64,000 bases of DNA from Mogibacterium sp. (GTDB lineage: Bacteria > Bacillota > Clostridia > Peptostreptococcales > Anaerovoracaceae). The notes below the pieces were generated by a model, which did no database searches, was not told the DNA's origin, and worked only from the letters and a program-made list of their open reading frames with translations. This document shows positions 19,991-63,859 of this stretch, piece by piece (the first letter of the stretch is position 1; each line of letters starts with the position of its first letter). The stretch covers positions 62,001 to 126,000 of the forward strand of contig JAFWGQ010000004.1 in the NCBI GenBank assembly GCA_017512365.1, written 5' to 3'. A program made the position numbers and the translations under genes.

Positions 19991-20563
19991 TTATTCATCC
20001 GCGAGAGCCTTCATCTCGCTTATCATGCCTCCGAAAAGAGCGTCCTGCAGCTTTTCGTTGGTCTGGATGTATGTGGTCCAGCTGCCGTCTTCAGCCTCCG
20101 TCGCCTTTACATCCACATAGCTGACATGGCTCCTTTTTTTGAGCCCGGCCAGCCTTGAGAAAAGCTCTTTATAGAATTCGCCGCCTTCTGCGTCCTCTGC
20201 AGATGCGTCCTTATGCGTCTTCAGATAATCCTTCCACGTCGCGAGGTACTCCCTGCCGAAGTCATAGCTGGTGATCTTTACGGTCACGAGAGTGTATGCT
20301 CCGTCCCCGTCATTTTTGACCTCGCTTCCGAGTATCTTGTAATCGAAGTCCCTCACCTTTGCGAGGAAGGCGTCGAAGTCCTTTCCCGAGTCCTCAGGAA
20401 GATCCTCCTTTACCTCAGCAAGGCTGGAGGCCGCGGTCGCAGAAGTCCTCAGCGCGTCAAGCTCATCCTCTACCTGGCTCTTCGCGCCGCCTCCCGAGCA
20501 GGCCGCGAGCATCACCGCGAGGATCGCAGCGCATATTGTCATGATCGCAGTTTTCCCTGTCAC
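19991..20563 (-). CDS. Predicted lipoprotein of unknown function
   Basis: A 190-residue protein with a lipoprotein signal (positive start, hydrophobic run, lipobox LAAC, Cys about residue 22). The mature part is acidic and begins with a Gly/Ser linker. It has no motif I recognise; the alternating pattern (DFDYKILGSEVKNDGD... TLVTVKITSYDFG) suggests a small beta-sandwich like several DUF-type Firmicute lipoproteins. Its ATG overlaps the selB stop as ATGA, so it is in the sel operon, and its stop is close to mrp. No role in selenium use can be inferred from position alone. Confidence 0.75.
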   Translation of the reverse strand: MTGKTAIMTICAAILAVMLAACSGGGAKSQVEDELDALRTSATAASSLAEVKEDLPEDSGKDFDAFLAKVRDFDYKILGSEVKNDGDGAYTLVTVKITSYDFGREYLATWKDYLKTHKDASAEDAEGGEFYKELFSRLAGLKKRSHVSYVDVKATEAEDGSWTTYIQTNEKLQDALFGGMISEMKALADE

Positions 20564-22455: not shown

Positions 22456-22468
22456 ATTATTACACTTA

Positions 22469-23926: not shown

Positions 23927-23949
23927 GGCATCGACCTCCGTTTACAAAG

Positions 23950-24046
23950 TGGCGGGAGTACGTGGGAATCGAACCCACCCGAGAGGCTCTTAACCCCTTA
24001 CAACGGTTTTGAAGACCGCGAGGCACACCAGCACCTGTCTACTCCC
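23950..24046 (-). tRNA. selC: tRNA-Sec (TCA)
   Basis: A 97-nt tRNA with anticodon TCA in the loop CTTCAAA, a long variable arm (about 20 nt), a long D-stem and an extended acceptor (GGGAGTA pairs with TACTCCC; the eighth pair would be G-G), discriminator G, and an encoded CCA. These are the hallmarks of bacterial selenocysteine tRNA. It is the first gene of the selC-selA-selB unit. Confidence 0.96.
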
Positions 24047-48024: not shown

Positions 48025-49625
48025 TGGATCAGCTTTCTGGACTCAACATTTCCAACGGCATACTCAGGGAATATACCGGGCAGGCCAGTGACATAATAAT
48101 ACCGGAAAAAGTGAAGGGCATATCAAGTGCTGTTTTCAAGGACTATCATGCCCTTCGCTCCATTATGCTGCCTGCCGGTCTTGAGGAGATAGATTCGCGC
48201 TGCTTTGAGGGATGTACCGGTCTCAAGACCGTAATGTTCCCGGCCAGTCTGTCCAGGATCGGCAAGTACGCATTCGCCGGATGCAGCAGTCTGGTCTTTT
48301 TCAGGATGCCCGCAGGTCTCAGCGTCATCGGTTCATATGCCTTCAGGGACTGTATATCACTTTCATCAATAGAGCTGCCTGAAGGCGTAGAAGAGATAGG
48401 CGTCGGCGCATTCATGGGATGCAGCGGACTCAGGACCATCCGGATCACGGGCAGACATACTACCATCAAGTCCGCATTCGGTACTCATCCGTTTGTGGGA
48501 TGCGACAAACTGAAGATCTACACTCCTTCGGGAAGCGAGGCCGAGAGATTCGGACTCGACAACGGCATCCCTGTCATAAACATACACGCTGCGCAAAAAG
48601 ACACAATGCCGGAGATTGAGAAGTCTGCAAAGACTTCGCATGTCAGCTCCGGGGCGGGCGAGAAGGCCGCGTTCACTTTCGCCGATACTCACCCTGCTGC
48701 TCCTGCTGCTTCTTCTCCTGCTCCTTCTGCAGCTGCAATTCCTGCAGCTGTTGCTGAAAAGCATGATACGGAGCCTGAGGATCACGATGCCGAAAAGAAC
48801 CAGCAGATATATGATGAAGCAGTTTCCCTTTACAACAGCGGCACAGAAAGCGGCATGCAGAAGGCCATAGAAATGATGCGCAGCATCGGATCCTTCAGCG
48901 ACGCGCGGCACAAAGCCAGAGAATTCGCCAAAGATCTGAAGAGGCAGCAAAAGGAATCCGCCAGAAGTCTGAAGGAACAGCAGAAGGAATCCGCCAGAAA
49001 TCTGAAAATGAAGCAGAAGGAATCCGCCAGAAGTCTGAAGGAACAACAGAAGGAGTCCAGAAAGGAAGAAGCCGAAAAAGAAAGGCTGGCGCGAAAAAAA
49101 GCTGCCGGGCAGGAAAAGACCGCAAAGCCCGGACGTTCTGTCAGTCTAAAGGCCGCAGTGATCGTGCTGGCGCTGGTGCTGGCGGCCGGAGCCGGAGCAG
49201 CGGGAATATATTACGCAAAGACTCACCCCCTCTCCTCCGGGGACAGCAAAACAAGCAATACAAGCAATACGACAGATGACTACACTCTCACTCTGGAAGA
49301 TTATATAAATAGCAACGATGCCGCAAAGAAACAGCTGATACAGTCTGTCGAAGATACTGACGTGATCATATCCGTTTCGAAGAACACACTTATCTACACC
49401 TACGACCTCAGCTCTTCCAACAGCGTAACGCCTGAACTGGCACAGAGTGAAGAACTGAAGGAATCTCTCGGTGAAACACTCGATTCCAGCGATGAGAAGT
49501 TCACGGAATTATGCACGGGCCTCGAAAAAGACACCGGCATAAGCGGTGTCTCTGTAGAAGTCATATTCAGATATGGGGATGAGGAGCTGCTCACAAGAAC
49601 ATACACCTCTGAGGGCCGGCAGTAA
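48024..49625 (+). CDS. LRR_5 - repeat linker - transmembrane - DUF4854 protein
   Basis: A 533-residue protein without signal peptide. Residues 20-185 are BspA-type leucine-rich repeats (cAFxGCxxLxxIxLPxgvxxIg). Residues 220-245 are Ala/Pro-rich. Residues 262-300 resemble a small TPR-like helical module (YDEAVSLYNSGTE... AIEMMRSIGSFSDA). Residues 308-344 are three 11-residue repeats (KESARSLKEQQ), probably helical and strongly charged. A membrane span lies at 374-397, and residues 420-533 match DUF4854 (TLEDYINS... LIYTYDL). Positive charges before the span predict LRRs in the cytoplasm and DUF4854 outside. Function unknown. Confidence 0.8.
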   Translation: MDQLSGLNISNGILREYTGQASDIIIPEKVKGISSAVFKDYHALRSIMLPAGLEEIDSRCFEGCTGLKTVMFPASLSRIGKYAFAGCSSLVFFRMPAGLSVIGSYAFRDCISLSSIELPEGVEEIGVGAFMGCSGLRTIRITGRHTTIKSAFGTHPFVGCDKLKIYTPSGSEAERFGLDNGIPVINIHAAQKDTMPEIEKSAKTSHVSSGAGEKAAFTFADTHPAAPAASSPAPSAAAIPAAVAEKHDTEPEDHDAEKNQQIYDEAVSLYNSGTESGMQKAIEMMRSIGSFSDARHKAREFAKDLKRQQKESARSLKEQQKESARNLKMKQKESARSLKEQQKESRKEEAEKERLARKKAAGQEKTAKPGRSVSLKAAVIVLALVLAAGAGAAGIYYAKTHPLSSGDSKTSNTSNTTDDYTLTLEDYINSNDAAKKQLIQSVEDTDVIISVSKNTLIYTYDLSSSNSVTPELAQSEELKESLGETLDSSDEKFTELCTGLEKDTGISGVSVEVIFRYGDEELLTRTYTSEGRQ

Positions 49626-49639
49626 GCCAGCCCTTTTTT
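49613..49639 (+). terminator. Terminator after the LRR/DUF4854 gene
   Basis: GGGCCGGC/GCCAGCCC (one mismatch) then TTTTTT, overlapping the stop codon. It separates the plus-strand unit from the convergent acyl-conjugate operon. Confidence 0.75.
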
Positions 49640-52304
49640 ATTGCTCTTCGTCATCCACACTTACAGCGCCGGTCTTGAAAATGATCTTTGACTGACCTGT
49701 CGAGCCGGAGACCCTGCCGCCATAGAACACATCCACACGGTCCGCGGCACACAGCATATTGAACTTCTTTACCATTTCCGTGATTCCGCTTCCTTCAAGC
49801 GCTCCGACAAAGGCCTGTATGCCCTCCCTGTTGAATCTGCTCATGCCGTTCGCAAGCTGCCATGCTCCGACCTCGGCCTGAGCCGCACCGTCTGCAAGCT
49901 GATTCACTCCGGTCAGAAGATCTTTCGTTCCGTCGCTGAGCTTAGCAGTGCCGTCTGCAAGCTGCCCTGCACCGCCCTTCAGCTGGCCGGCGCCATCTCT
50001 GACAGCGCTCGCGCCTTTTGATAATTCGACCGTCCCGGCCTTCAGCTGATCAAGTCCTTCGCTGAGCCTGGCGGCTCCGTCATCGATCGCAGCAGCGCCG
50101 TCATCAAGTTCTGAAGCAGCCTGTGCCATTGTGGCTGTTCCTTCCTTGAACTGGTCTGTTCCATCCTTAAGCTCTCCTGCATAATAATCGACAGTCAGAG
50201 CACCTTCCCTGATCGCTTTTCCGCCTTCATCAAGAGCTTCCGTGCCTTCCTTGAGCTCGCCGACTCCTGTATCCAGCTTTGCTGCGCCAGCATCGATCTC
50301 TGCAACACCGTCATCTATCGCGTGTGCGAGGACAGCCATCACTCCCGTCGATATGAGCATCGCAGTCGCGGTCGCGTCTGCTGCCTCAGCCTGTTTCTTA
50401 ACTGTCCCGGCTGTGCTGTTTGCCCTGTCTGCCTTATCCGCTATATCACTGACAGAACTCTTTCCTGAAGATTCCTTCTTTCCTGCGGCTGACAGCGACC
50501 CTTTAAGAGCATCCAGGTTGCTGCTGACCTCATCAGCGCTTGACGAGGCTGAATCGACACTGTCCACATAAGACTCCACTCCGGCAAGATACGAATCAAG
50601 TCCGTTCAGTTCGGAGATCGCGCTGTCGATCAGAGCCCTTTTGCCTTCATCTTTGACGAGTCCTCTTGCAGCCTGGAGCTGACCGCGGTATGAAGAGATA
50701 GCGCTTCTGTATCCGGATGCGCCACCGCTTATTCCCGTTCCCTCCGCCGAGAGGCCGTTGAGTATGCTGTTCATCTCATCAGCTGCGTCTACAGCAGAAT
50801 CTGCACCTCTTTCTGCAGTTCCGATCTTCGATCTGACGCTCTGGTCTCCGGCAAGATCATGTATATCGTCAGCTACTTCCTGAGTCTGACCTTTGAGCTT
50901 TTTTGCGTTCTTTTCGAGCAGGAGAGTCTCTGCCTTCATCACAGCCGATTCCGCAAGCACCGCATCTGCAGCAACATGGAGCAGACCCGACGCAGAAGAC
51001 AGTTTTCCTGTACCGTCCCTGAGCGCTATGGTGCCATCCCTGAGGGTACCGACGCCGTCATCCAGAACAGACAGCTGTTTGCTGAATTCTATCGTTCCTT
51101 CTCCCAGCACAGAGGTCCCGTCCTTCAGACTTGTTGCTCCTTCATTCAGTAATCCTGCGTTCTCATCAAGAGTCTCTGCGCCTTTCCTGAATTCGCCAGT
51201 CCCGGAATGCAGCTGACTGCTGCCTTCTGAAAGCTCCTTCGCTCCGTCCGCGAGCTGTCCGGCGCCTTCATCAAGAGTGTCGGTGCCTTTTTTGAGTTCA
51301 TCAGTCCCGTCATACAGCTGCGCACTGCCTTTATACAGATCCGATGCTCCTTTTTTGAGAGTTTTCAATGCTCCCGCAAGCGTGCCGGATCCGTCCCTTA
51401 GCTGCTCAGTTCCGTCTGCGAGCTGTGTAACGCCGCTCGCGAGACTGCTGCTTCCGCTCACCAGCTGGTTTGCGGCTGACGAAAGCTGCGACAGACCTGC
51501 TTCAAGCTGATCCATCATTCCGGCGGCGTCATCGACCATTCCTTCTATGCCGCTCTCAGCCAGCATCCCCGTTGTTGCGATGCTGTATGTACCATCTATC
51601 CTGAACGAATCTGTATCGGCTTTGATCACGATATTTTCAGGTATCGCGAGAGAATCGTCTTTTATGCCGAGATTCTCTTTCATTCCTGGCAGTGCATAAC
51701 CCATGCATACTGTAGAATCACCGTTGTGCAGGACCTTTCCGTTCTCCACGCTGATATTGCTGAAATGCTCGTTGCTGAGCATAAGGCCGCTCGCCACCAT
51801 GTACGGATGTGTCATGACGCCGTCGCCGACGCTGACCGTGCTGCTTATATCATAGTCAAAGTGTATCTCGACCTTGCCAGACTTTCCGGCTATCTTATCT
51901 GCAGAGACCTTTTTGCCGTTGAGATAATACGATATGCTCATCTCGATCGGCAGGGCTCTGTCCGATGTCCCCTGATACCTTATGCTGTTGCCTTTGGCAT
52001 CCCATACGAGATTCGCTCCGTCTCTTTTGAATTTCTCCGATCCGGATATGTTTTCTATATCGCTCAGATACGATACGTCTTCGATCTTTTCTTCGCCGTA
52101 GCTGTGCAGCAGCTCGTCTACCAGCACCTTTTCGGTAGATCCATCTGCAGACTTGATGACATATACAGTCTCTTCCTTGTCTATTTTTTCGAGGGTCGTC
52201 TCAGCGTATGAAGGGACACACAAAGACATTCCCGCCGTGGTGAATACCAGCACGAACGAGAGTGCGAGAGCGATCGTTCTTTTTGTAATGTCTGTTCCTG
52301 TCAT
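49638..52304 (-). CDS. Secreted heptad-repeat protein of YhgE/MMPL-partner type
   Basis: An 888-residue protein with a signal sequence (hydrophobic 10-34, PSYAE). Residues 40-245 form a beta-rich domain (LPIEMSISYYLNGKKV...). Then come two long arrays of LxdGtxqLxxGaxxL heptads (about 255-440 and 690-830), flanking a helical region. These repeats mark YhgE/Pip and MMPL-associated proteins and should form long coiled coils. Unlike YhgE it lacks the ABC-2-like membrane domain and has no C-terminal anchor. It follows the MMPL gene by 87 nt and probably assists export or spans the envelope. It has its own promoter. Confidence 0.75.
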   Translation of the reverse strand: MTGTDITKRTIALALSFVLVFTTAGMSLCVPSYAETTLEKIDKEETVYVIKSADGSTEKVLVDELLHSYGEEKIEDVSYLSDIENISGSEKFKRDGANLVWDAKGNSIRYQGTSDRALPIEMSISYYLNGKKVSADKIAGKSGKVEIHFDYDISSTVSVGDGVMTHPYMVASGLMLSNEHFSNISVENGKVLHNGDSTVCMGYALPGMKENLGIKDDSLAIPENIVIKADTDSFRIDGTYSIATTGMLAESGIEGMVDDAAGMMDQLEAGLSQLSSAANQLVSGSSSLASGVTQLADGTEQLRDGSGTLAGALKTLKKGASDLYKGSAQLYDGTDELKKGTDTLDEGAGQLADGAKELSEGSSQLHSGTGEFRKGAETLDENAGLLNEGATSLKDGTSVLGEGTIEFSKQLSVLDDGVGTLRDGTIALRDGTGKLSSASGLLHVAADAVLAESAVMKAETLLLEKNAKKLKGQTQEVADDIHDLAGDQSVRSKIGTAERGADSAVDAADEMNSILNGLSAEGTGISGGASGYRSAISSYRGQLQAARGLVKDEGKRALIDSAISELNGLDSYLAGVESYVDSVDSASSSADEVSSNLDALKGSLSAAGKKESSGKSSVSDIADKADRANSTAGTVKKQAEAADATATAMLISTGVMAVLAHAIDDGVAEIDAGAAKLDTGVGELKEGTEALDEGGKAIREGALTVDYYAGELKDGTDQFKEGTATMAQAASELDDGAAAIDDGAARLSEGLDQLKAGTVELSKGASAVRDGAGQLKGGAGQLADGTAKLSDGTKDLLTGVNQLADGAAQAEVGAWQLANGMSRFNREGIQAFVGALEGSGITEMVKKFNMLCAADRVDVFYGGRVSGSTGQSKIIFKTGAVSVDDEEQ

Positions 52305-52349
52305 GCGCTTTACTGAAACGGGCCTTATATCTGCCCATATACGGTATAT

Positions 52350-52378
52350 ATTATATCACAAAAACCACATGTGGTATA
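52350..52378 (-). promoter_or_regulatory. Internal promoter with 12-bp perfect palindrome
   Basis: On the minus strand TGATATAAT is an extended -10 (box at 52350-52355). The spacer/-35 region holds the perfect palindrome ACCACATGTGGT (52364-52375), well placed for a repressor. It would drive the heptad-repeat gene apart from the rest of the operon. Confidence 0.5.
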
Positions 52379-52391
52379 GAAGCGGGTTGTA

Positions 52392-54470
52392 TTAAATAGC
52401 GTTCTTTTTTTCGCTTTTTTCAGATGGTCTGAGGCTGAACGAGCCCATGATGAACCTGTCGGACAGCATCAGGAATCCCGGGAGCACGAACAGCACCATA
52501 AAGAGCGAACAGATCGTTCCCCTTCCGAGCAGCAGTCCCACCTGAGCTATGATCCTCTGTGTCGAGAACAGCGACAGGAGAAACCCCATCACGGCTACCG
52601 CAGTCGCAGATGTCATTATGGATACAGCCGTATCCGATATCGTCTGAACGATGCACTCCTTCGGTTCCATTCCGGATGTCTTGCGGTTCTCCCTGTATCT
52701 CTGTGTGAACAGGATCGCATAATCGACAGTGGCTCCAAGCTGGACCGAGCTTACTATCAGATACGCTATATAGAACAGCGGGGACCCCGTGATCAGGGAG
52801 ATGCTCATGTTCACCCAGATCGCCGTCTCTATGGTCAGTACTAGTATCACCGGGAGCAGAAGGTTCTTCATGGTCAGCAGCAGCACGATGAACACCGAAA
52901 GTATGGCAACGGTATTTACCCTGAGCATGTCGGAAGTGACCACATTCTTCAGGTCATATACGTTGACGCCCTGGCCGGCCATGTAATACCCGTCCGGATA
53001 GTACTTGTCCGCAGTGTCATATACCTTCTTTACAAAGTCAAAGGTCTCTTTGCTTTCCACCGGAAGGTCGACAGATATCAGTATCCTGTCGTAATTATCG
53101 GATCTGAGCTGTGTTGTCAGGCTTTCCGGAAGCATTTCGAACGGAATGGATTCTCCTATTACTCCGACCGGTGAAGTCACCGACAACACCTCAGGAAAGT
53201 CCTTGAGTTCTCTGATCAGAGCATGCTCCTCGGATACCTTTCCCGTCGGCACCATCATCACATAGGAGTCATTATAGCCGAATATCTCTGTAATGCTTTT
53301 GGAATCCCTGCCGACCCGCGTATCAGTTCCGTATATCTGCGATGCACCGTAGAGATAGCTGTTTCTTGTGCTGCCGATGAAAGAAGGTATCACGATCAGT
53401 ACGAACACTATCATCAGCGGGACGGTAACTCTTGTGACAAAGCTTCCGAATCTGCGGAAAGACGGCATGAAGTTCCTGTGTTCTGTCCTCACCAGCCATT
53501 TATATGTTTCGAGTATGAGACCAGGCATGAACACGAGCGAAGTGATCAGACTGATCGCAACGCCCTTCGACAGCGCGAGTCCGAGATCCGCGCCGAGAAG
53601 GAACCTCATCGTCGCAAGTGCAATGAAGCCTATGACCGTTGTAAGACCGCTCGACAGTATCGACGAGGTGGAAAGCACCAGCGCATCCTTCATGGCTTCT
53701 TCAGGCTCGGCGTCCTGACTGCATTCTCTGAACCGGTGTATGAGGAACACTGAATAGTCAAGCGAGACAGCCATCTGCAGAATGATGCCGGCCGAATTTG
53801 TAACAAACGATATCTTGCCGAACACCAGGTTCGTTCCGGCGTTGATCACTACCGCTATACCCAGGCCGATCATGACTATGGCAGGCTCGATCCATGACGT
53901 GGTCGTAATGGCAAGGATAAAGATCAGGAAGAGGATGGATATCACAGTTATGAGAGCCACTTCTTTTTCCGTATTGAGCGTAGCCACCACAGTCAGAACT
54001 GCAGTACCGGAAAACATATTGTCCTCGCCTATCAGATCATATATCGCAGGGACGGTCCTGAGCTGCTTTGCTTCATCTATCGTGACGATGAACATAGCGT
54101 TTCCGTCCTTGTAATATGTATTTCTTATACTTTCCGGGAACATATCCAGAGGCATGTCAAGCGGGATCATGCTGTCGAGCCAGTTCACTGCAAGCACGCC
54201 GTCTGTTTCTTCAAGTTTCCTCTTATACTCCAGCGCTTCTTTTCTGTCCACGTCCCTCACGACGACAAAGGCATTCGGCACATTTCCTCCGAACTCCTCT
54301 GCCATCACTTCAAGAGAGGTCGTCGACGGCGAATCCTGCGGCAGATAATGGAGTATATCATAGTCAACATACACCCTTGTCGCGAGAAATGCGCAGATGA
54401 CGGCAGCGGCAATAAATGCCAGCATCACCGCTTTTCTGTATTTGATCACTTCGCTGTAGAATCGTTCCAT
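52392..54470 (-). CDS. MMPL/RND-superfamily exporter
   Basis: A 692-residue membrane protein with the two-fold RND layout: TM1, extracytoplasmic loop (about 35-165), five or six TMs, a linker, TM7, second loop (about 375-520), and five more TMs. Each half has the Asp-Tyr proton-relay pair typical of MMPL proteins (SLDYSVFL at 236-243, TVDYAILF near 590). It is shorter than mycobacterial MmpL proteins and lacks their C-terminal domain. Lipid or acyl-conjugate export is expected from the family and from the ACP, ligase and GH3 neighbours. 23 nt downstream of the ACP gene. Confidence 0.9.
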   Translation of the reverse strand: MERFYSEVIKYRKAVMLAFIAAAVICAFLATRVYVDYDILHYLPQDSPSTTSLEVMAEEFGGNVPNAFVVVRDVDRKEALEYKRKLEETDGVLAVNWLDSMIPLDMPLDMFPESIRNTYYKDGNAMFIVTIDEAKQLRTVPAIYDLIGEDNMFSGTAVLTVVATLNTEKEVALITVISILFLIFILAITTTSWIEPAIVMIGLGIAVVINAGTNLVFGKISFVTNSAGIILQMAVSLDYSVFLIHRFRECSQDAEPEEAMKDALVLSTSSILSSGLTTVIGFIALATMRFLLGADLGLALSKGVAISLITSLVFMPGLILETYKWLVRTEHRNFMPSFRRFGSFVTRVTVPLMIVFVLIVIPSFIGSTRNSYLYGASQIYGTDTRVGRDSKSITEIFGYNDSYVMMVPTGKVSEEHALIRELKDFPEVLSVTSPVGVIGESIPFEMLPESLTTQLRSDNYDRILISVDLPVESKETFDFVKKVYDTADKYYPDGYYMAGQGVNVYDLKNVVTSDMLRVNTVAILSVFIVLLLTMKNLLLPVILVLTIETAIWVNMSISLITGSPLFYIAYLIVSSVQLGATVDYAILFTQRYRENRKTSGMEPKECIVQTISDTAVSIMTSATAVAVMGFLLSLFSTQRIIAQVGLLLGRGTICSLFMVLFVLPGFLMLSDRFIMGSFSLRPSEKSEKKNAI

Positions 54471-54493
54471 TCCGTTCCCTGTTCAGCACTGCG

Positions 54494-54712
54494 CTAACGG
54501 CGTGCGCTGATATATTCAACTATATCGCTCACCGTGACAAACTTCATCAGATCTTCGTCCGGGACTTCGATGTCAAAAGCTTCCTCGAAATCCCCGACCA
54601 TGGATACCACATCAAGAGATGTCAGTTCAAGATCATCGACGAGCAATGATTCCGGCCTGATCTCCTCAGCCGGCGAATATTTTCTGATTATCTCTTCTAC
54701 CTGTTCAAACAT
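54494..54712 (-). CDS. Acyl carrier protein
   Basis: A 72-residue acidic helical protein. The phosphopantetheine serine is S32 in LELTSLDVVSMV; DSL of fatty-acid ACPs is TSL here, but the Ser-Leu-Asp core is kept. It is distinct in context from fatty-acid synthase ACP, lying 2 nt after the condensation-domain gene and 23 nt before the MMPL exporter, so it is presumably a dedicated carrier of this pathway. GGGGGAG precedes the ATG. Confidence 0.88.
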   Translation of the reverse strand: MFEQVEEIIRKYSPAEEIRPESLLVDDLELTSLDVVSMVGDFEEAFDIEVPDEDLMKFVTVSDIVEYISARR

Positions 54713-54714
54713 CG

Positions 54715-55947
54715 TTACTCCCCCATCGCTCTGATTATGATATCTTCAAAACTGCAGCTGTCGTTCCTGATCCCTTCGGCCAGGATGTCCGGTATCTGTC
54801 TGATCATCTCAGCAGCCGCTTTATCAGGATATTTCACATTGTGTTCGAGCTGCAGCGTCAGTCTCTCGCTTCCCGTATCCGTGATGGACAGGGTCATTAC
54901 GTTTCCGACTTCGGCGCAAGGATACCACATCGCCCTTGCTGACGGATCCGAAGATATCTTTGCAGTCTGATAGCTGAGCCACAGATCGTACGGAGCCTCT
55001 CCGAACGGGTACACGCCTGCCGCCGACTTGTGGTATCTGTATCCGCCGACGAGTTTCTCTCCCATCCTGCCGATGTTCTCCGCAAAGGATGCATCTTTAT
55101 CGCATTCAAGCAAAAGCGGGATAGTAGTGGCAAACAGACCGGCAGTATTCTTCTCTCTTATCCCGGCGCGGTTCATCACCACTGATCCGACAAAGAAATC
55201 GTCCCTGCCAAGCTTTCTGCTCATCCAGGCGGCGACGGCTGTCACAAACAGGCTGTATACCGAAACGTTATGTAACGCTGCATAGGCCTTTATCTCATCG
55301 CTCAGCCCCTCTGACATTTCAGCAGTCGCCCAGTGTTTTGCCGGGCGCAGCGGTCTCCCGGGAGAAAGATATGTCTTTTCAGGCAGACGTTTTTTCTGCT
55401 CCTCAAAGAATTCCCTTCCTCTGGCAAATCTTTTGCTTTCCCTGAATCTCTTCTCGCTTTCCGTGAATTCTTCATACCTGAAGGCTTCCGGATGTCCGCC
55501 GTTGACGATGCTCAGGAACTGATCCGCCAGGAGCATGCAGGTCCAGCCATCGGATATTATGTGATGTATCCTTACAAGCGCTCCGTAGGCATCCGGCATC
55601 TGGACGATCTGCATCTCGACCAGCTCTTGATCCTCTCCCATGCGGAACGGCTTCTGGGCCCACTTCCCGCCCTTTTTGTCCAGTTCCCTGAGATCCCTGA
55701 ATTTTACCACCTTGAATTCCCGCGGTTCAAATCCAGCGATAAACTGAGCAGGCTGCCCGTTTTCGTCAGTCACCACGCGGGTCCTCAGGACATCGTTGAT
55801 GCGCAGCACTTCATTGGCAGCGTGCTGAAGCTTTTCGATATCGCACGTTCCCTTTACGATCAGGCTCCCTCCGAGCACACACGCCCTTCCAAAGCCCGCC
55901 TCCTGAGCTTTATATAAATAGTATTGCGGTCCTGTCAGTCCTGTCAT
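54715..55947 (-). CDS. Stand-alone condensation-domain acyltransferase
   Basis: A 410-residue protein covering a full condensation (C) fold like NRPS C domains, VibH and Pap acyltransferases. The active-site motif is HHIISDG (128-134), intact, with a second-half DFFVGSVVMNR segment in place of the usual latch/floor motif. No adenylation or carrier domain is fused. The ATG at 55947 gives a natural C-domain start; a longer frame to 56013 overlaps the previous gene. Adjacent to ACP, so an acyl or aminoacyl thioester on that ACP is a likely donor, forming an ester or amide. Confidence 0.87.
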   Translation of the reverse strand: MTGLTGPQYYLYKAQEAGFGRACVLGGSLIVKGTCDIEKLQHAANEVLRINDVLRTRVVTDENGQPAQFIAGFEPREFKVVKFRDLRELDKKGGKWAQKPFRMGEDQELVEMQIVQMPDAYGALVRIHHIISDGWTCMLLADQFLSIVNGGHPEAFRYEEFTESEKRFRESKRFARGREFFEEQKKRLPEKTYLSPGRPLRPAKHWATAEMSEGLSDEIKAYAALHNVSVYSLFVTAVAAWMSRKLGRDDFFVGSVVMNRAGIREKNTAGLFATTIPLLLECDKDASFAENIGRMGEKLVGGYRYHKSAAGVYPFGEAPYDLWLSYQTAKISSDPSARAMWYPCAEVGNVMTLSITDTGSERLTLQLEHNVKYPDKAAAEMIRQIPDILAEGIRNDSCSFEDIIIRAMGE

Positions 55948-55972
55948 TCTCTGTATACCCCCATTCCCCCTT

Positions 55973-57709
55973 TTATTGATCTGATGCGATGATATGCGAG
56001 CTGAAATACTCATGGACGTCCTGTGTATCGATGACTCGCAGGGCCTTCAGCTGGTTCGGAGATGTTCCGCCTGCTATCTGCATATCTCTGTATTTTCTGA
56101 AGGTCCCCTGTCCGACCCTGTAGATCACAGCCTTATCGACCACTCCGTTTTCTCTGAAATAGGCGTAGTCCCATCCGTATTTACGCAGGGCGGCGTCGAA
56201 CACCTCTGAATAAACGCCGCAGTCTTCAGCCAGACCGGTGTCATCCGCTGCACTCATCTCCATGAAAAGCTCTATCCTGGGCTTGTTGTGGCCGGCGTCA
56301 GCATAGATGCAGTGATCGGCGATATGTATGCCGATATGTTTTTCAAGGTCGTTCACAGCCGCTGCAAGCTGTGCTCCGGTAAGGTGCACCGAACACATAT
56401 TGGTGATTTTGTCTGCGCGATATGCAAATTCCAGATAAGGTATCTGTCCCTCGAATCCCGTCACCCTTACAACGTCGCGTATCTGGTAACGGTACAGACC
56501 CGCCTTGCTTGTCAGGATGATCTCGTAAAGCTTGCCTTCCTCAAGTTCATGCATGAACAGAGGCCTGTCCGACTCTTCCTCTACCGGAATGAATTCGAAG
56601 AAGCCAGCGTCAGGGAACAGAAGGACGCTTTCGTCCTCGAGTCCCATTACATTTCCGAAAAAGCATTCTGAAGAAGCATACTGCAGATTACAGAAGGAAA
56701 CACCGTCATCACACATCGAGCGCATAGTATCGGAAAAAGGCTTGAAATCCTCGACCCCGATCGCAGCCACGACAGACAGATCCTTCCATATCCGGCTGAG
56801 CAGGTTGCCCCCTTCAGGATCAGCAAAGATCTCTCTCAGTTCAGCGGCCCGCTCAGGGTCAGGACTGATATCCCTTTCGATTATGCTGCGTACGCGGTCT
56901 GAGATATCCACTGAAGGATCTACAGTCCCCGTTTCTATGTCATGTATGAGCATATCCTGCTTTTCAATAATGAATGCAACGATGTCGGTGAGGCCGGTCA
57001 TATAAACGCTGCCGAGGCATGTCAGATACCGGTCCTTAAGAGCGTACATAGCCCTGACATATCTGTTATCCCTGATCTCGCTGCTTCCTATGATCGCCCC
57101 CGGCTGATTGACCAGCGCCGGGATAAACGGTTTTATCCCGTTCGCCGAGAACCTTGATATCATGCCGGACTTCATACCGCCTCCGACATTTTCCTCACCC
57201 ATTTCCGTGGTGATGAAACTCTTGCCATATCTCCTGTTCAGGCCTCTCCGCCTCATAGCTTCGTACATATCGTCTGCAGTCATGATGAGCGCCTTGAAAT
57301 ACGGCATGTATGAACGGAGGACCTGCGGCATCAGCTTTTTTTCGCTTATCGTACCTGTAGTCGTGGCAAAGAACAGAACCTTCTCTCCGGTGATCAGTCC
57401 CTGCTCGCCGTTATCGATCATCCGTCTGATATACGGCTTGTAATCCTCATACGTCGAAAGCGGCACCGCCTTCTGGTATTCAAGCGGCGTTTTTATATCC
57501 GAAAATCCGTACTTTCTGCCAAGTTCTGTATTTCGGCTCCTGCGGAGTATCCCTTTGAGAGTCCGTTCGCTTATGCGCTGCCCCCTCGGTCCTGCTGCGA
57601 TATAATATTTCCTGCACAGCTTTCCGAGGATATGTCCCGACCAGAGAACAGCCGCGTTGAATGCAGCTTCCGCAGGTTTGTATGTTGTTTTTCTCAGCCT
57701 TTTTTTCAT
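55973..57709 (-). CDS. GH3-family acyl-acid amido synthetase, copy 1
   Basis: A 578-residue protein of the GH3 family, members of the adenylating superfamily that in plants couple acids such as jasmonate or auxin to amino acids. Motif I is TTTGTISEKKL (116-126), motif II YASSE (344-348), motif III YQIRD (408-412), where the usual Gly of YRxGD is Arg but the Asp remains. A C-terminal lid domain follows (about 430-578). Its ATG overlaps the ligase stop as ATGA, so the two are translated together. Substrates unknown. Confidence 0.87.
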   Translation of the reverse strand: MKKRLRKTTYKPAEAAFNAAVLWSGHILGKLCRKYYIAAGPRGQRISERTLKGILRRSRNTELGRKYGFSDIKTPLEYQKAVPLSTYEDYKPYIRRMIDNGEQGLITGEKVLFFATTTGTISEKKLMPQVLRSYMPYFKALIMTADDMYEAMRRRGLNRRYGKSFITTEMGEENVGGGMKSGMISRFSANGIKPFIPALVNQPGAIIGSSEIRDNRYVRAMYALKDRYLTCLGSVYMTGLTDIVAFIIEKQDMLIHDIETGTVDPSVDISDRVRSIIERDISPDPERAAELREIFADPEGGNLLSRIWKDLSVVAAIGVEDFKPFSDTMRSMCDDGVSFCNLQYASSECFFGNVMGLEDESVLLFPDAGFFEFIPVEEESDRPLFMHELEEGKLYEIILTSKAGLYRYQIRDVVRVTGFEGQIPYLEFAYRADKITNMCSVHLTGAQLAAAVNDLEKHIGIHIADHCIYADAGHNKPRIELFMEMSAADDTGLAEDCGVYSEVFDAALRKYGWDYAYFRENGVVDKAVIYRVGQGTFRKYRDMQIAGGTSPNQLKALRVIDTQDVHEYFSSHIIASDQ

Positions 57710-59370
57710 CGCTTGCTTTCACTTTCCTGTTTATTCAGCAGATACCTCTTGATCTTCATCGTAGTGGTCTTGTCGAACGGGATATCTCTGACTTTGATCC
57801 TTGCAATGTTCCTGCTCTTCGGAACACTGCTGTTGAACTTCCTTATATCGCCGTCTATCCTGTCACGAGCATCAGGGAACCTTTTCTCATCCATGTAGAA
57901 TTCTGCCGTGATCTTTTTATCTTCCTCGTATACAGCCACATCTTCGACATATTCGATCCTCGAGAGTTTCTGCTCGAGCTCCTCCGGAGAAATATTTTCT
58001 CCATTCGCGAGGATTATCAGATTCTTTTTGCGGCCGGTGATATACAGAAACCCGTCTTCATCCAGCCTGCCGTAGTCGCCTGTCCTGAACCACTCACCGT
58101 CGAACGCTTCAGCAGTAGCCTCCGGATCCTTGTAATAACCCAGCATCACGTTCGAGCCCGAAACGAGTATCTCGCCGATGCCTTTCTCATCCGGCTCATC
58201 GATCCTCACACGGTTGCACGGCAGCGGCTTTCCGACACTTCCGTACCTGTGGTCATGGTTGCGGTTTACCGCCACAACAGGCGAACACTCGGTGATACCG
58301 TAGCCGCACAGCACCTCTATGCCCAGATCGCGCAGTCCTTTTTCGACCTCTTCGTCAAGATGAGCGCCTCCGCAGATTATGAGCTCAAGCTCTCCTCCGA
58401 AATTGTCATGCACGCTTCTGAAGATGCTCCTTCGCATGTCTATCCCGATCTTCATGAGAGCTCTGCTCAGGGCAAGGCCCCTTCTGAGCCTGTCTTCCTG
58501 CCCGCTGCTTCTGGCAGTGTTCCATATGCCTTTGTACAGCATCTCTGCCATCATCGGAACGGCAGCCACGTTCTGAGGATGATTGGTCTGAAAGTCCTTT
58601 ACGATATGCCTGAGATTGCCGCTTATGTGAAGGTCCTTTATGTACAGGAATGCCGCCAGCATGGCGGACGCCCACGAGAAGGTGTGATGGAGAGGCAGCA
58701 GAAGCTGTGCGTGGTCTGCCTGTGCGCACATACAGGTAGCCACCACATCGCTGGTGATATTGCCGTGCGACAGCATGACTCCCTTCATTTTGCCCGATGT
58801 GCCCGATGTATAGACAATGCTTGCCGGAGTGTCCCTGTCTATTCTTTCCCCGGCCTCGCTGAAAGCTCTGTTCCCGTCATCTATGAGTTCTCTTCCCTCG
58901 TCCGCATATTCGTATACTTTCGAAAGCGGATAGTATGATATGTCGGAGTACCTGCCGCCGAGGCTCTTCAGATGGTCGATGACCGGTACGCTCCCGTCGG
59001 AATAAAAAACGGCCGAACATTCACTGTGCTCCGCAAGCTCAGCGATATCCTGAAGAGGGAGTGCTCTGTCAAAAGGTACCGCCACATTTCCGCTGCACGT
59101 AACAGCAAGAAAGCTGAGGACCCATTCAGTGGAGTTCTCACCTATGATAGCTAAATGGGCGGCTTCATGCCCCTGTGACAGAAGGAATGTCCCCAGCTGC
59201 TCGGTCAGGCTGCTGCATTCACCGAAAGTTACAGGTATATCATTATGACGGCCTCTGTAAAACACAGTAACATCGCGGCCCTTTTCTCTGCCGTTGTCCG
59301 TCAGTTCTCTGATCGTCCATAATTCAGGAATATCGTAATAAGGATATGGAGCATTCCTTACGCGTTTCAT
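57706..59370 (-). CDS. AMP-dependent acyl-CoA/acyl-ACP ligase-like enzyme
   Basis: A 554-residue ANL-superfamily enzyme. P-loop TSGTSGKMKG (188-197), the LPLHHTFSW segment of long-chain ligases, CGYGITECSP near 345, FRTGDYGRLDEDGFLYITGRKK, and a C-terminal catalytic Lys in TTTMKIKR. It should activate a fatty or other carboxylic acid as an acyl-adenylate and load CoA or the downstream ACP. FAAL-type insertion is not obvious. Overlaps GH3 copy 1 by 4 nt. Confidence 0.88.
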   Translation of the reverse strand: MKRVRNAPYPYYDIPELWTIRELTDNGREKGRDVTVFYRGRHNDIPVTFGECSSLTEQLGTFLLSQGHEAAHLAIIGENSTEWVLSFLAVTCSGNVAVPFDRALPLQDIAELAEHSECSAVFYSDGSVPVIDHLKSLGGRYSDISYYPLSKVYEYADEGRELIDDGNRAFSEAGERIDRDTPASIVYTSGTSGKMKGVMLSHGNITSDVVATCMCAQADHAQLLLPLHHTFSWASAMLAAFLYIKDLHISGNLRHIVKDFQTNHPQNVAAVPMMAEMLYKGIWNTARSSGQEDRLRRGLALSRALMKIGIDMRRSIFRSVHDNFGGELELIICGGAHLDEEVEKGLRDLGIEVLCGYGITECSPVVAVNRNHDHRYGSVGKPLPCNRVRIDEPDEKGIGEILVSGSNVMLGYYKDPEATAEAFDGEWFRTGDYGRLDEDGFLYITGRKKNLIILANGENISPEELEQKLSRIEYVEDVAVYEEDKKITAEFYMDEKRFPDARDRIDGDIRKFNSSVPKSRNIARIKVRDIPFDKTTTMKIKRYLLNKQESESKR

Positions 59371-59411
59371 TCTGCTAAATATTCATCCTCTTCTGTTTAT
59401 TTATACTGCTG

Positions 59412-61106
59412 TTATTCTTCAATGATCCTGGCCTGGAAAAACTGTTTTTTTTCAGCTGTATCCAGTATCCTTACAGGTTTTACCGTGGACTCAGGCGTCC
59501 CGTTTTTTACCTTCATGTCAGCCCATGCCTTCTGTGTGCCGCACTCAAGATTCCTGATCTGTATCTTTCCGACAGCATCCATATTGTAAAAGTAGTCATA
59601 TCTAGGATTGACGGCCTTCAGTATCTCATGCGCATTGTCCGCATACCCGCTGAGGTCCTTGCCCTCTTTGTTCTCGAGCAGCAGCTCGTAATAATACGGA
59701 TGTTCCTCGAGCCTGCTGACTACGGCCCAGTCTGTCACTGTGCACCCGCTTGCCTTGCCTATCTCCTTTACAACAGCGGCCATATGCTCCTCAGTCGTCT
59801 TTTCACCGCAGATATTCAGCAGCTGTCCCTTCCTGTATGAAAACTGTATGTACGGACAGTCATTCAAATGCCCGACGACTTTTATCACATCGCCGCATCT
59901 GTATCTGTACAGCCCCGACTGGTTGGTAATCACGATCTCATATTCCCTTCCTTCTTCGAGTTCATCGATCTCAAGCATCCTGTCTTCGGATCCGCCGTCT
60001 TCGTTCTGGGGGATGAACTCATAATAACAGCTGTCGACAAGCATCAGCTGAGCCGCAGTATCGAGCTCATCGACAGCAGCAAAGAGGCCCTCGCTTGCGC
60101 CGTATATCGAATAATCGAAAGGGACTCCGTCCGCATACCTGCGCACCTTCTTTGAGAACGGAGTGAATGTTGATGTCCCTATACCGCAGATGACCGACAT
60201 GTTCGGCCACAGGCGTTGTATCAGAGTGCTGTCAAAGCCCTTTTCGAATTCCGTTCTCAGCTCAGCCGCCCTCTCAGGGTTTGGCTTAAGAACGCTCTTC
60301 AGCCTATCCATCGCTTCCGGAGTGGCCTTGGCGAGTTCACTGATACTGCCCTCTTCTATATCCTTCACTATGACCGGCCAGTTTTTTTCAAGAAAGTCGA
60401 ATATACTGGATATCTCTCTGAAAAACACACTGAACATATAAATAATGTCTCTGTCTTCCAGAGCGAATCTTGAGATTATGTATTTGGTTTCGATCTCCTG
60501 GTCAGTCAAACGATTTTTGAGCGGATCGCTAAGTATATACGGATAAATGAAGCCAAGCTGTCTGGCAGCTACATCGGCTATATTGCTGCATATCGTTCCG
60601 TCCGGAAGGATATCGTTAAATGCCGGGCACGTAAACATGCCTCTCGCAGCTTTTAGCCCTCTACCGCGGTATTTCCGGCTGTAACGGTCCGCCAGTGCGA
60701 GCATCCTCGTTACCGTATACCTGGTATAGATATCCACCTCAGGCTGTGTCAGAGGAACGAATTTCCTTTTTCCTACGCTGCCTGAACTCTGTGCATATCC
60801 CACAAGAGGAAGTGAGGTCAGAAGGTTCTCTTCGCCTCCGTCCACCATCCTGACTATATACTCTTCGTAGTCGGAAAATTCCGAAACGGGTACCATACGT
60901 CTGAAGTCTTCGATGGTCTTTATCTCGTCAAAGTGGTATCTGCGTCCATATTCACTGTTTTTATTGACCTCAAGTATCCTGAAGAGCAGCTTCCTATTCT
61001 TCTCTCCCGCATCAACGGTGTTCCTGTGCATCATTTTCAGGTCATGATACCCTTTTTTTATCATCCCCTTTATTATGATCCTGGTAAGTATATCTCTTTT
61101 TTCCAT
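59412..61106 (-). CDS. GH3-family acyl-acid amido synthetase, copy 2
   Basis: A 564-residue GH3 protein, clearly paralogous to copy 1 but strongly diverged. Motif I SSGSVGKRKF (107-116), motif II YGASE (335-339), motif III YRCGD (402-406), all consistent with ATP use. The C-terminal domain (about 420-564) is present. Keeping two diverged copies in one operon suggests different acid or amine substrates. 32 nt after the secreted hydrolase gene; AGGGA precedes the ATG. Confidence 0.87.
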   Translation of the reverse strand: MEKRDILTRIIIKGMIKKGYHDLKMMHRNTVDAGEKNRKLLFRILEVNKNSEYGRRYHFDEIKTIEDFRRMVPVSEFSDYEEYIVRMVDGGEENLLTSLPLVGYAQSSGSVGKRKFVPLTQPEVDIYTRYTVTRMLALADRYSRKYRGRGLKAARGMFTCPAFNDILPDGTICSNIADVAARQLGFIYPYILSDPLKNRLTDQEIETKYIISRFALEDRDIIYMFSVFFREISSIFDFLEKNWPVIVKDIEEGSISELAKATPEAMDRLKSVLKPNPERAAELRTEFEKGFDSTLIQRLWPNMSVICGIGTSTFTPFSKKVRRYADGVPFDYSIYGASEGLFAAVDELDTAAQLMLVDSCYYEFIPQNEDGGSEDRMLEIDELEEGREYEIVITNQSGLYRYRCGDVIKVVGHLNDCPYIQFSYRKGQLLNICGEKTTEEHMAAVVKEIGKASGCTVTDWAVVSRLEEHPYYYELLLENKEGKDLSGYADNAHEILKAVNPRYDYFYNMDAVGKIQIRNLECGTQKAWADMKVKNGTPESTVKPVRILDTAEKKQFFQARIIEE

Positions 61107-61138
61107 TCTCTGTCCCTTCTGTTAATTATCTTCGTTTA

Positions 61139-63859
61139 TCATTTGACTGTGACCTTCATTTTTTTGGACCATGACGATACATATGCCGTCGATCCGCTGC
61201 TCCTCACGTTTCGTACTCTTATATAATATGTGCTGCCTTTTTTCAGTCCCTTGAGTCTGTACGACCTCCTGGTCTTCTTAAGGGTTACTGTCTTAGCATT
61301 TTTGAAATTCCTGTATTTACTGTACTGCAGCTGTATACCGCTGATTTTTTTGAGCTTCTTTGCCGGCAGCTTTTTCCAGCTGACAGTAAAGTTCCTCCTG
61401 CCGCTCTTCGCTTTCACGCTATCCGCGGCCGGGACGGTCTTGCTGTATACCGTCGTTGTTTTTGCAGCTGCAGAGCCGGCCGTGCTGTTCTTTGTCGCAG
61501 GTGCTGTTTTGCCAGCCGTGTCATTCGATCCGGCGGAGCTTCCCTTTTCTTTTCTGCTCAGCGTATACACAGCGCTTGTCAGGTCGTATTTGCCGTCTCT
61601 GTATTCGGCTGCAGGCATATCGATCGTAAGAGTCTCTCCCCTCTTCGCATCAAGTCCTTTCCAGCTGCCGCTGTCATCGCCTGTGACAGCACGTTTGACG
61701 CTGCCGTCTGTAATGGAGTAATCATCCACTTCGAGGCTGACTGCCGCGTCTTTGCTGAACTGTATGTTCACCTTGCACGGCCGGTCGATCTGCAGTCTGA
61801 GCCAGTTGCCGCTGTCAGATGTAGTCATGCCTGTCCATTCGTCGTTTCTAGATGTGATCCCGCTTTCCGTGAACGAAGCGATCTGTCTTCCGCCGCTGTC
61901 GGTAACGGTCCCGCTGACGGATACCCCTTCCGGCTGACTGATCAGCACTCTTCTGTAGCCCGTGTTCTGCGCTTCTGTGCCCTTGCTGAAATCGGCATAA
62001 TACGGAGAAGCCTCTCTGTACCAGCTGTAAACGGACATGTACATGTGCATGGATGCATATCTTGAGAAATTCCCCAAAAACGTCGCCATCTGGCAGAACT
62101 GCTCGTTGTCGAACTTCAGAGGCTCGATCTTACTGCTCTGCAGACTGTTTCCGAATATCAGACTTGCGAGGAACCACGCCACAGGTTCTCTGCTTTCTTC
62201 GGAAGTCAGCTTCTTTATGGTCTCTTCGTCCTTGCCCGCTGCTGTAAGAGCTTCTTTCATGCAGTCCGCATACAATACCCCCGTCAGTTTTTTGAGGTAC
62301 TTCAAAAGAATACTTCTCTCGGAACCGCTGAGCGATATGTTGAGCCTGTATGCTTTTTCAGAATCATCGCCGCCCTTTGTGAAATACGTATCCCTGATAT
62401 ATTCATATGCGGTAAAGCGTTTGTATTCATTCCTGATGCTGCCGTCCTCATCCTCCATCTCCGAAGCAAGGCGGTTGAAGCTCTCCTCGATGAGTTTGTT
62501 GAGCTCCGCGCTGTTCCCGCTTATGCTCTTGTCAACAAGGAACGTTGTATACATGCAAAGCACCAGAGACATCGATTTCTTCGTGCCCGTCATCGCATTT
62601 ATCATGATCTCGATGTTGCGGTAATTGATGCCGTCTTCAAAGAAGAATCCCACGAGATCCATCATCGGCTGCTGATAAACGTTATAAAAGCCCTTTCTGC
62701 TGTCGCCGTCTCCTTCCTGTGCGCATACCCTTTTGATGGTGTCCTCTAATGCACTCATGTAAACGGCCTGATCCCTCGGAATATATGAATCCGGATCAGG
62801 GACCATGACAAGTTCACCGCTTTTGAGGGCTTCCGTGTCAGGCTTCATCGGCATGAAATCATCCGGATCTTCCTCTCTTACATATGCCTCATATATCCAG
62901 GCATAGTCTTTTTTCATGAGATCGAGTACTCTGGCCTTGACCTCTTCATAGTCTTCCGACTCACGGTCTCTGATACCGTAGTCCGTTCCGTACCTGTCGA
63001 ATTCATCAGACGTCGGCAAAATCGAAAGTATATCCGCGCCGTCAAATACATTGTGTATGTTGGCGTACATATCGTTCTTCGGATCCGAATACACGGACGC
63101 CGCTCTCATAGGAGAGAAATTATAGCAATACAGATCAGCCGGTTTGAAAGTCGGATTGCATACTACATACGCCGGATATCTGAGCAGTTCGGCAGCAAAG
63201 AGATTGCATACGCCTCCGCCTCCGCTGTATCCGGTCGTCCATACCTTGAGATCGCCCTTTATACCGTGATCCTGTATATACTTCCTTACAAAGGCGACTA
63301 CCTTATCCTTGCACGCATCATAGCCGGCATGATCGCCCTTGTCACTGCCGCTGTTACTGAGTATGAGACTTCTTTCAAACTCCTTGCCGAAGGTGCCGCT
63401 CCTCGGGATCACGGCAAGCAGGGTATAGGTCTTTCCTCTGTCCGTGATGCTTTTGCGGGCGCATGCGACCGCCGATGATTCAAGAGATGCTTCCCCTTTG
63501 TAATCATCGTTGACCTCAAAATCCGTAAAACCGTTGTCAGTCAGCAATTCTCTGAGATTGCGGCTCTGTGTCTCAAGGGTCGATCGTCTTGTCTGGTAGG
63601 TGGAGTTGCATACGAAAAATGACAGTGCAGCAAGGCTGCTGTTGTACTGCATGGAATCGCCTCTGAAAAAATCGTCGCTGTAATAGACGACATCCGGCGT
63701 GTTGTACACGTGGTACGCCATTTCCTTCACAGCTGCAGTATCGCCGCTTTCTATCGCCGCATAAGACTGCGCCGGAAATGACAGCGCCGTCGGGACAACA
63801 AGAGCCGCGCTCAGTACTGCTGCAGTTACACGTCTTAATACCCTGGATCCTGATCTCAT
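61139..63859 (-). CDS. Secreted alpha/beta hydrolase (lipase-like) with C-terminal fibronectin type III domain
   Basis: A 906-residue protein. A signal peptide (about 1-35, ending SYAA) is followed by an alpha/beta hydrolase region with the nucleophile elbow TGYSGGGG (Ser212) and a lipase-3-like layout (...AVIPRSGTFG..., YNFSPMRAASV, NIHNVFDGADILSILP, where a catalytic Asp may lie). A long helical region (about 350-620) precedes a beta-rich segment and, after a Ser/Thr/Ala linker, a Lys-rich Fn3 domain (about 810-906). AGGAG 7 nt before the ATG at 63859 decides the start. First gene of the GH3/ACP/MMPL operon; it may process or release the exported lipid, or act on host lipids. Confidence 0.8.
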   Translation of the reverse strand: MRSGSRVLRRVTAAVLSAALVVPTALSFPAQSYAAIESGDTAAVKEMAYHVYNTPDVVYYSDDFFRGDSMQYNSSLAALSFFVCNSTYQTRRSTLETQSRNLRELLTDNGFTDFEVNDDYKGEASLESSAVACARKSITDRGKTYTLLAVIPRSGTFGKEFERSLILSNSGSDKGDHAGYDACKDKVVAFVRKYIQDHGIKGDLKVWTTGYSGGGGVCNLFAAELLRYPAYVVCNPTFKPADLYCYNFSPMRAASVYSDPKNDMYANIHNVFDGADILSILPTSDEFDRYGTDYGIRDRESEDYEEVKARVLDLMKKDYAWIYEAYVREEDPDDFMPMKPDTEALKSGELVMVPDPDSYIPRDQAVYMSALEDTIKRVCAQEGDGDSRKGFYNVYQQPMMDLVGFFFEDGINYRNIEIMINAMTGTKKSMSLVLCMYTTFLVDKSISGNSAELNKLIEESFNRLASEMEDEDGSIRNEYKRFTAYEYIRDTYFTKGGDDSEKAYRLNISLSGSERSILLKYLKKLTGVLYADCMKEALTAAGKDEETIKKLTSEESREPVAWFLASLIFGNSLQSSKIEPLKFDNEQFCQMATFLGNFSRYASMHMYMSVYSWYREASPYYADFSKGTEAQNTGYRRVLISQPEGVSVSGTVTDSGGRQIASFTESGITSRNDEWTGMTTSDSGNWLRLQIDRPCKVNIQFSKDAAVSLEVDDYSITDGSVKRAVTGDDSGSWKGLDAKRGETLTIDMPAAEYRDGKYDLTSAVYTLSRKEKGSSAGSNDTAGKTAPATKNSTAGSAAAKTTTVYSKTVPAADSVKAKSGRRNFTVSWKKLPAKKLKKISGIQLQYSKYRNFKNAKTVTLKKTRRSYRLKGLKKGSTYYIRVRNVRSSGSTAYVSSWSKKMKVTVK

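What the first reader, a model, noticed from the sequence alone, without database searches (positions are those of the whole stretch)
49638..63859. Undescribed acyl-conjugate biosynthesis and export operon: two GH3 enzymes, acyl ligase, condensation domain, ACP, MMPL
Eight minus-strand genes with short gaps or overlaps (32, 41, -4, 25, 2, 23 and 87 nt) combine: secreted hydrolase, GH3, ligase, GH3, stand-alone condensation domain, ACP, MMPL exporter, heptad-repeat secreted protein. Seen directly: catalytic motifs intact in all enzymes. Established: FadD-like ligases load acyl carriers, C-fold proteins transfer acyl groups, GH3 enzymes make acyl-amino acid amides, MMPL proteins export lipids. 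Inference: the operon makes a lipo-amino acid or similar lipid conjugate and exports it, comparable in logic to mycobacterial FadD-Pap-MmpL loci but with GH3 chemistry. I know of no characterised bacterial pathway with this set.
Basis: partly seen in the sequence, partly recalled or inferred. Interest (0 to 1): 0.9.

Follow-up and report, generated by a model that had tools for sequence, protein, structure and literature searches.

The report
Rumen Clostridia lipid-amide assembly-and-export operon
An uncultured gut bacterium carries eight adjacent genes that together look able to activate a fatty acid, join it to amines or amino acids through amide bonds, and export the product, a combination of known parts that I did not find described as one pathway.

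Summary
In detail: eight intact minus-strand genes, 49,638-63,859, with exactly the gaps reported. Ligase, ACP and stand-alone C domain are the gene set of the fatty acid amide (FAA, "Oaa") systems of gut Clostridia (PMC13142362), though here they form their own lineage. The two GH3 proteins are full-length acyl-acid amido synthetases; one bacterial GH3, OlsH, is known to make N-acyl-ornithine (PMC12493201). The unusual part is the coupling. Ligase, GH3b, C, MMPL and ACP recur together in a distant congener. The window's MMPL is sister to that congener's MMPL, not to those at the same chromosomal place in two close relatives, so the exporter seems co-inherited with the enzymes. In another family, two GH3 genes sit beside a fused ligase-ACP-C protein and two ABC exporters. 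My model: the triad makes an N-acyl amino acid or amine with a free carboxylate, GH3 enzymes extend it, MMPL exports it, and two secreted proteins act outside. Substrates and reaction order are inferred. New variant of a known kind.

The parts
61139..63859 (-). hyd: secreted class-3-lipase-like alpha/beta hydrolase with C-terminal fn3 domain (ORF open from 63907)
   Evidence: hydrophobic N-terminus; S228/H285/D292/H621 invariant in 10 family members; AlphaFold model poor (pLDDT 52.6)
59412..61106 (-). GH3a: GH3 acyl-acid amido synthetase
   Evidence: Pfam GH3 N/M/C domains; match to plant GH3 structures; motif I SSGS present
57706..59370 (-). lig: ANL-superfamily acyl ligase (FadD/OaaA-like)
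   Evidence: PF00501; best solved relative FadD13; 32-37% blastp identity to the ligases of five FAA-type triads
55973..57709 (-). GH3b: second GH3 synthetase, separate clade from GH3a, next to C in the 3 of 3 genomes where this clade was seen
   Evidence: motif I TTGT (Thr for Ser)
54715..55947 (-). C: stand-alone condensation domain, HHIISDG motif (ORF open from 56013)
54494..54712 (-). ACP: 72-aa acyl carrier protein with an LTSLD attachment-site region
   Evidence: PF00550; sequence
52392..54470 (-). MMPL: RND-type exporter, apparently co-inherited with the GH3b cassette
   Evidence: PF03176; tree places it with G008:C12 MMPL, 100/99
49638..52304 (-). hept: secreted xxxLxxG heptad-repeat protein, partner of MMPL, apparently resident at the locus
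   Evidence: TIGR03057; nearest of five copies is the syntenic one in G025:C46, 64%, fork 94/96

Best explanation
A lipid-amide assembly and export operon. Step 1 (inferred from the family): the ligase adenylates a fatty or other acyl acid and loads it on the ACP. Step 2 (inferred from the FAA systems): the stand-alone C domain transfers the acyl group from the ACP to a small amine or amino acid, giving an N-acyl product that can keep a free carboxylate, as oleoyl-aminovaleric acid does. Step 3 (inferred): GH3b, and then or separately GH3a, adenylates a free carboxylate and joins it to an amino acid or amine, so the head group grows by amide bonds without ribosome or multimodular NRPS. Step 4 (tree support for co-inheritance of MMPL; transport inferred): MMPL moves the conjugate out; the heptad protein assists outside, and the secreted lipase-like protein trims or transacylates the product at the surface. 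Reaction order and substrates are not shown.
For: Domain content and intact ORFs. lig-C-ACP stands alone at another place in G063 and G019, so the triad is a unit; the same three functions are fused in one 988-aa protein (AMP-binding, PP-binding, Condensation) beside two GH3 genes and two ABC exporters in G342 and, split over two contigs, in G704: 2 of 38 genomes of that family. GH3b directly next to C in 3 of 3 genomes with this clade (window, G028, G008). MMPL tree: window + G008:C12 100/99, against species relatedness (ValS identity 73% to G008, 95% and 93% to G025 and G063). MMPL homologues of at least 58% identity in 5 of 47 genus genomes, all 5 among the 7 with GH3 over cut-off. In 44 GH3 loci checked, those with two GH3 genes have an exporter within 6 kb on the same strand in 9 of 10, the others in 8 of 34 (many rows are close kin, so the Fisher P of 3e-4 is optimistic).
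Against: No activity, transcript or product data. All eight genes together are in one genome only. hyd-GH3a-MMPL-hept occurs without the triad (G063:C22) and the triad without GH3 beside it (G019, G063:C12), and G025 has lig-ACP with a GDSL-lipase gene and no C, so GH3 and triad need not share a product. MMPL-hept stands without these enzymes in G025:C46 and G008:C11; in G028:C19 too, but that contig ends just upstream of MMPL. GH3b has Thr at the position of OlsH's essential Ser. 21 of 44 GH3 loci had none of the looked-for partners (exporters, radical-SAM genes) within 6 kb.
Confidence: 0.5

Rival explanations
1. Ornithine-lipid logic in reverse order: a GH3 makes an N-acyl (hydroxyacyl) amino acid directly from free fatty acid, as OlsH does, and ligase+ACP+C then adds a second acyl chain as an ester or amide, doing the job that OlsI does in Singulisphaera; MMPL exports the two-chain amino lipid.
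For: OlsH needs no ACP or CoA and uses free fatty acids (PMC12493201); GH3 homology over most of the length to solved amido synthetases; G008 has three ACP-like stretches in its cluster, fitting more than one acyl loading.
Against: Both GH3 proteins score 86.5 and 72.5 bits against the OlsH model with cut-off 620. In the parts of PMC13142362 that I read, FAA-type C domains form amides; I did not look for O-acylating relatives of this C domain.
Confidence: 0.2
2. Two pathways share one locus: a resident hyd-GH3a-MMPL-hept unit makes and exports one conjugate, and an acquired lig-GH3b-C-ACP unit makes another.
For: G063:C22 has hyd-GH3a-MMPL-hept at the same chromosomal place (SSF 95%, DUF1015 88%), and its triad lies elsewhere. 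hyd of the window is nearest to G063's (100/99); GH3a likewise but with weaker support (88/87).
Against: The window's MMPL belongs with G008's cassette, not with G063's resident copy; genes are packed, one pair overlapping by 4 nt.
Confidence: 0.2
3. Conjugation and disposal of small aromatic or fermentation acids: GH3 proteins and ligase tag acids with amino acids, and MMPL works as an efflux pump.
For: Closest solved GH3 relatives are plant hormone-conjugating enzymes.
Against: ACP and C domain are not needed for that; a secreted lipase-like protein and an MMPL suggest a lipophilic product (inference).
Confidence: 0.08

Closest known systems
Fatty acid amide (FAA) systems of gut Clostridia, Oaa of Coprococcus eutactus (PMC13142362: abstract, introduction, sections 9 and 19 and a term search seen; primary paper Chang et al. 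2021 not held)
   Same: Free-standing ligase, ACP and stand-alone C domain in one cluster; window HHIISDG fits the reported range, (D/H)HxxxD followed by S, A or G.
   Different: Window-genus C domains and ligases form their own clades apart from five DHxxxD-type triads found here; on the fetched stretches of 11-16 kb around those five, no GH3 or MMPL hit was seen (0 of 5); the window adds two GH3 enzymes and MMPL. The words GH3, MMPL and transporter do not occur in the paper's main text.
OlsH/OlsI ornithine-lipid pathway of Singulisphaera (PMC12493201: abstract, introduction, start of results, sections 6, 7, 8 and the first part of the discussion read)
   Same: Bacterial GH3 enzyme making an N-acyl amino acid; an alpha/beta-hydrolase gene in the operon.
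   Different: Here two GH3s far below the OlsH model cut-off; the hydrolase-like protein looks secreted; ligase, ACP, C domain and exporter are present; none of the eight genes is a methyltransferase by Pfam.
Mycobacterial FadD-PapA-MmpL-Chp lipid loci, e.g. acyltrehaloses with FadD21, MmpL10, Chp2 (PMC4183827: outline and abstract only; PapA role recalled)
   Same: Logic: acyl ligase, C-fold acyltransferase, MMPL exporter, and an acyl-transferring protein acting outside the membrane.
   Different: No polyketide synthase gene among the eight; C is an NRPS-type domain (PapA5 model 25.5 bits, cut-off 396); GH3 enzymes added.

Membership tests
FAA (Oaa-type) system | free-standing adenylation enzyme, carrier protein and 300-520-aa condensation domain encoded together | tested here: met
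   same triad in congeners
FAA (Oaa-type) system | C motif (D/H)HxxxD followed by S, A or G | tested here: met
   HHIISDG in window, HHIISDA in the four congeners of alignment A1; range from PMC13142362 section 9
FAA (Oaa-type) system | C domain inside the FAA clade | tested here: inconclusive
   Tree of 26 C domains: window genus is one clade (100/99) apart from the DHxxxD clade (100/100); the fork joining both with L061 and one NRPS C is weak, 80/85. The DHxxxD loci are called FAA by gene set and motif only; OaaC itself was not available.
FAA (Oaa-type) system | amide formation from acyl-ACP and a free amine | not testable with these tools
   needs enzymes
GH3 acyl-acid amido synthetase | GH3 N, middle and C domains over the protein | tested here: met
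GH3 acyl-acid amido synthetase | nucleotide motifs I-III | tested here: met
   GH3a SSGS, YGASE, GLYRYRCGD; GH3b TTGT, YASSE, GLYRYQIRD; Thr for Ser in GH3b motif I
OlsH lyso-ornithine lipid synthetase (NF052613) | score over the curated cut-off of 620 bits | tested here: not met
   86.5 and 72.5 bits
MMPL exporter | Pfam MMPL over cut-off, many membrane segments | tested here: met
   164.2 bits, cut-off 20.5; hydrophobicity scan
MMPL exporter | exports this operon's lipid | not testable with these tools
   tree evidence for co-inheritance only
PapA-type acyltransferase | score over the PapA5 model cut-off | tested here: not met
   25.5 bits, cut-off 396

The most novel reading that the evidence does not exclude
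A hybrid route not seen in print in my searches: an FAA-type carrier-protein triad starts an N-acyl chain, and dedicated GH3 synthetases lengthen the head group amide by amide, with a co-inherited exporter. The same logic was assembled at least twice in Clostridia, once as separate genes with MMPL and once as GH3-GH3-(ligase-ACP-C fusion)-ABC-ABC, and paired GH3s with exporters make a wider class of exported lipo-amino-acid signals of gut bacteria.
Probability: 0.35. Interest if true: 0.8.

Novelty: new variant of a known kind. Interest (0 to 1): 0.62.

Why it matters
FAA lipids of gut Clostridia act on host GPCRs (PMC13142362). A lineage that adds GH3 head-group chemistry and its own exporter would widen the set of diffusible amide lipids from gut and rumen bacteria, give bacterial GH3 proteins a second role beyond ornithine lipids, and offer a small set of enzymes for exported lipo-amino acids that can be rebuilt in the laboratory.

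Tried and rejected
Structure of hyd: model too weak (pLDDT 52.6); Foldseek's listed rows are mostly fibronectin-type receptor domains, and a PDB profile search gave mostly fn3 rows plus one lipase at E 0.39, so the lipase-like reading rests on Pfam in 5 of 10 family members and invariant residues. VIA-align listed no PapA among the 50 rows shown for C; absence there proves nothing. Composition: operon GC3 0.52-0.63 against 0.57-0.77 in 11 flanking and housekeeping genes, suggestive only. Promoter-like sites 11 against 14.9 in shuffles, terminator-like 13 against 11.7: no more than chance. Literature: nine searches of one open-access library showed nothing on the full combination (listings of 1 to 20 papers each, titles and starts of abstracts only, apart from the three papers opened). 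The hypergeometric values ignore shared descent.

Full report
Observation. The window is G000:C72:62,001-126,000 of a 2.46-Mb MAG (completeness 92.9, contamination 6.94). Eight minus-strand genes stand at the stated place with the stated gaps. Pfam and NCBIfam confirm two GH3 proteins, one ANL ligase, one condensation domain, one ACP, one MMPL and one xxxLxxG heptad protein. The first gene encodes a secreted, lipase-like protein with an fn3 tail. GH3a and GH3b are the only two GH3 matches over cut-off in this genome; a third match is below it.

Organism. So the genus is a gut Clostridia group with members in ruminants; the family name is not settled here.

How the locus was put together. Valyl-tRNA synthetase identity to the window genome is 95% in G025, 93% in G063, 73% in G008 and 74% in G028. 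At the corresponding place G025 has only MMPL-hept (aminotransferase 99% and DUF1015 95% on one side); G063 has hyd-GH3a-MMPL-hept (SSF 95% on one side, DUF1015 88% on the other); the window has hyd-GH3a-[lig-GH3b-C-ACP]-MMPL-hept. The flanks are not fully collinear: the gene I call up476 lies upstream of the operon in the window and in G025, but downstream of hept in G063. tblastn of the eight proteins on the 11.6-kb G025 stretch found MMPL and hept and nothing else at E 1e-3. The distant G008 has, in order, hyd, two ACP-like stretches, lig, GH3b, C, MMPL, a C fragment and an ACP (its ligase frame is broken in the MAG); its GH3a and an MMPL-hept pair lie on other contigs. In a tree of nine MMPLs the window's copy is sister to G008:C12 (100/99), and the copies at the corresponding place in G025 and G063 fall outside. 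The heptad protein, in contrast, is nearest to G025's (64%; fork 94/96 among five copies). The simplest reading is that MMPL came with lig-GH3b-C-ACP and replaced the resident MMPL, while hept stayed.

Distribution. Of 47 genus genomes, the window's included, 7 have GH3 over cut-off, 5 have the ligase at E <= 1e-120, 5 have MMPL at 58% identity or more, and 5 have hyd at E <= 1e-80, 11 copies in all. Of these 11 hyd copies 5 sit directly next to a GH3 gene and a sixth is in the same cluster; of the other five, one is about 15 kb from a GH3 gene, one lies upstream on a contig with GH3, two have no GH3 in the fetched stretch, and one (G008:C22) was not inspected. All 5 MMPL genomes are GH3-positive; 4 of 5 for hyd (exception G070) and 4 of 5 for ligase (exception G019). 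Many genomes are incomplete, so absences are soft. Over the GH3 cut-off are 29 of 297 genomes sampled in the order and 29 of 392 in the class; both counts include the window genome and many short partial matches.

A fused counterpart. In G342, a class-level relative, two GH3 genes are followed by a gene for a 988-aa protein with AMP-binding, PP-binding and Condensation domains and by two ABC exporter genes; G704 has the same genes over two contigs. These are the 2 of 38 family genomes with a close match; the other matches are 26-32% identical parts of longer NRPS frames. Ligase, ACP and C thus form one functional unit there, and that unit meets a GH3 pair and exporters a second time. Gene order, exporter family and sequence differ, and the fused C lies far from the window's C on a long branch, so I read this as separate assembly rather than common descent.

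GH3 context in general. I classified 44 loci that I had fetched: all 10 in the genus, the 9 strong ones of the order search, 24 of the class search and G704; eight further class loci over 80 bits and the short partial matches were not fetched. Within 6 kb on the same strand: MMPL 3, ABC exporter 12, MATE 2, radical-SAM cluster 6, none of these 21. Loci with two GH3 genes: 10, of which 9 have an exporter; the tenth, G704, is cut by its contig end and its ABC genes lie on another contig. The others: 8 of 34. G501, whose GH3 is broken by a stop, was printed as two pieces and I count it as single. The ABC genes near G426:C10's GH3 may be unrelated. Several paired loci also carry RimK-type ATP-grasp ligases, which again points to amino-acid addition. 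Contig ends hide neighbours in several loci, and many rows come from the same two genera.

Mechanism. What is shown: gene content, packing, modular history, tree support for co-inheritance of MMPL, and recurrence. What is inferred from families: acyl loading, condensation, GH3 amide synthesis, export. What is my own commitment: the triad's product keeps a carboxylate that GH3b, and perhaps GH3a, extends. I prefer this order because GH3b is beside C wherever it was seen (3 of 3) and because the known FAA product oleoyl-aminovaleric acid has a free carboxylate of the kind GH3 enzymes adenylate. The reverse order and the two-pathway reading remain open and are listed as rivals.

Judgement. The parts are known and the combination is new as far as nine literature searches in one open-access library can tell.

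Noticed in passing
L169, L171, L172, L173, L174, L288 (around the GH3 gene): In six genomes of other genera a GH3 gene sits among two to four paralogous ~445-aa proteins; the one scanned (L169:13861-15222) is a radical-SAM enzyme with a B12-binding-like domain. A different, recurring GH3 gene cluster.
   Followed up: partly
L049 7218-10419; L289 9077-14045: GH3 followed by a MATE-like transporter gene and a gene related to a SpoIIE-type phosphatase in two distant genomes (Pfam run on the L289 genes; the L049 ones matched by blastp).
   Followed up: partly
L048 8336-10468: A frame running off the contig end holds a family-2 glycosyltransferase domain followed by a GH3 domain: a GT2-GH3 fusion, in the sister species G025.
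   Followed up: partly
L280, L290: GH3 pairs with RimK and other ATP-grasp ligases and ABC exporters lie near an NRPS; the one in L290 has C, A, T and NAD-binding (reductase-like) domains.
   Followed up: partly
L057 8223-8906 and 891-1085: G008's version of the cluster has two extra ACP-like stretches between hyd and ligase and a short second C fragment after MMPL.
   Followed up: partly
window 48024-49625: Convergent neighbour: LRR_5 protein with a DUF4854 domain, fast-evolving between close species (56% and 38% identity) although its neighbour DUF1015 is 95% and 88% identical.
   Followed up: no
window 20560-24046: selB, selA and tRNA-Sec lie together: selenocysteine machinery in this lineage.
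   Followed up: no
L030 5333-14536: A 3,067-aa open frame upstream of the operon on the same contig, not examined.
   Followed up: no
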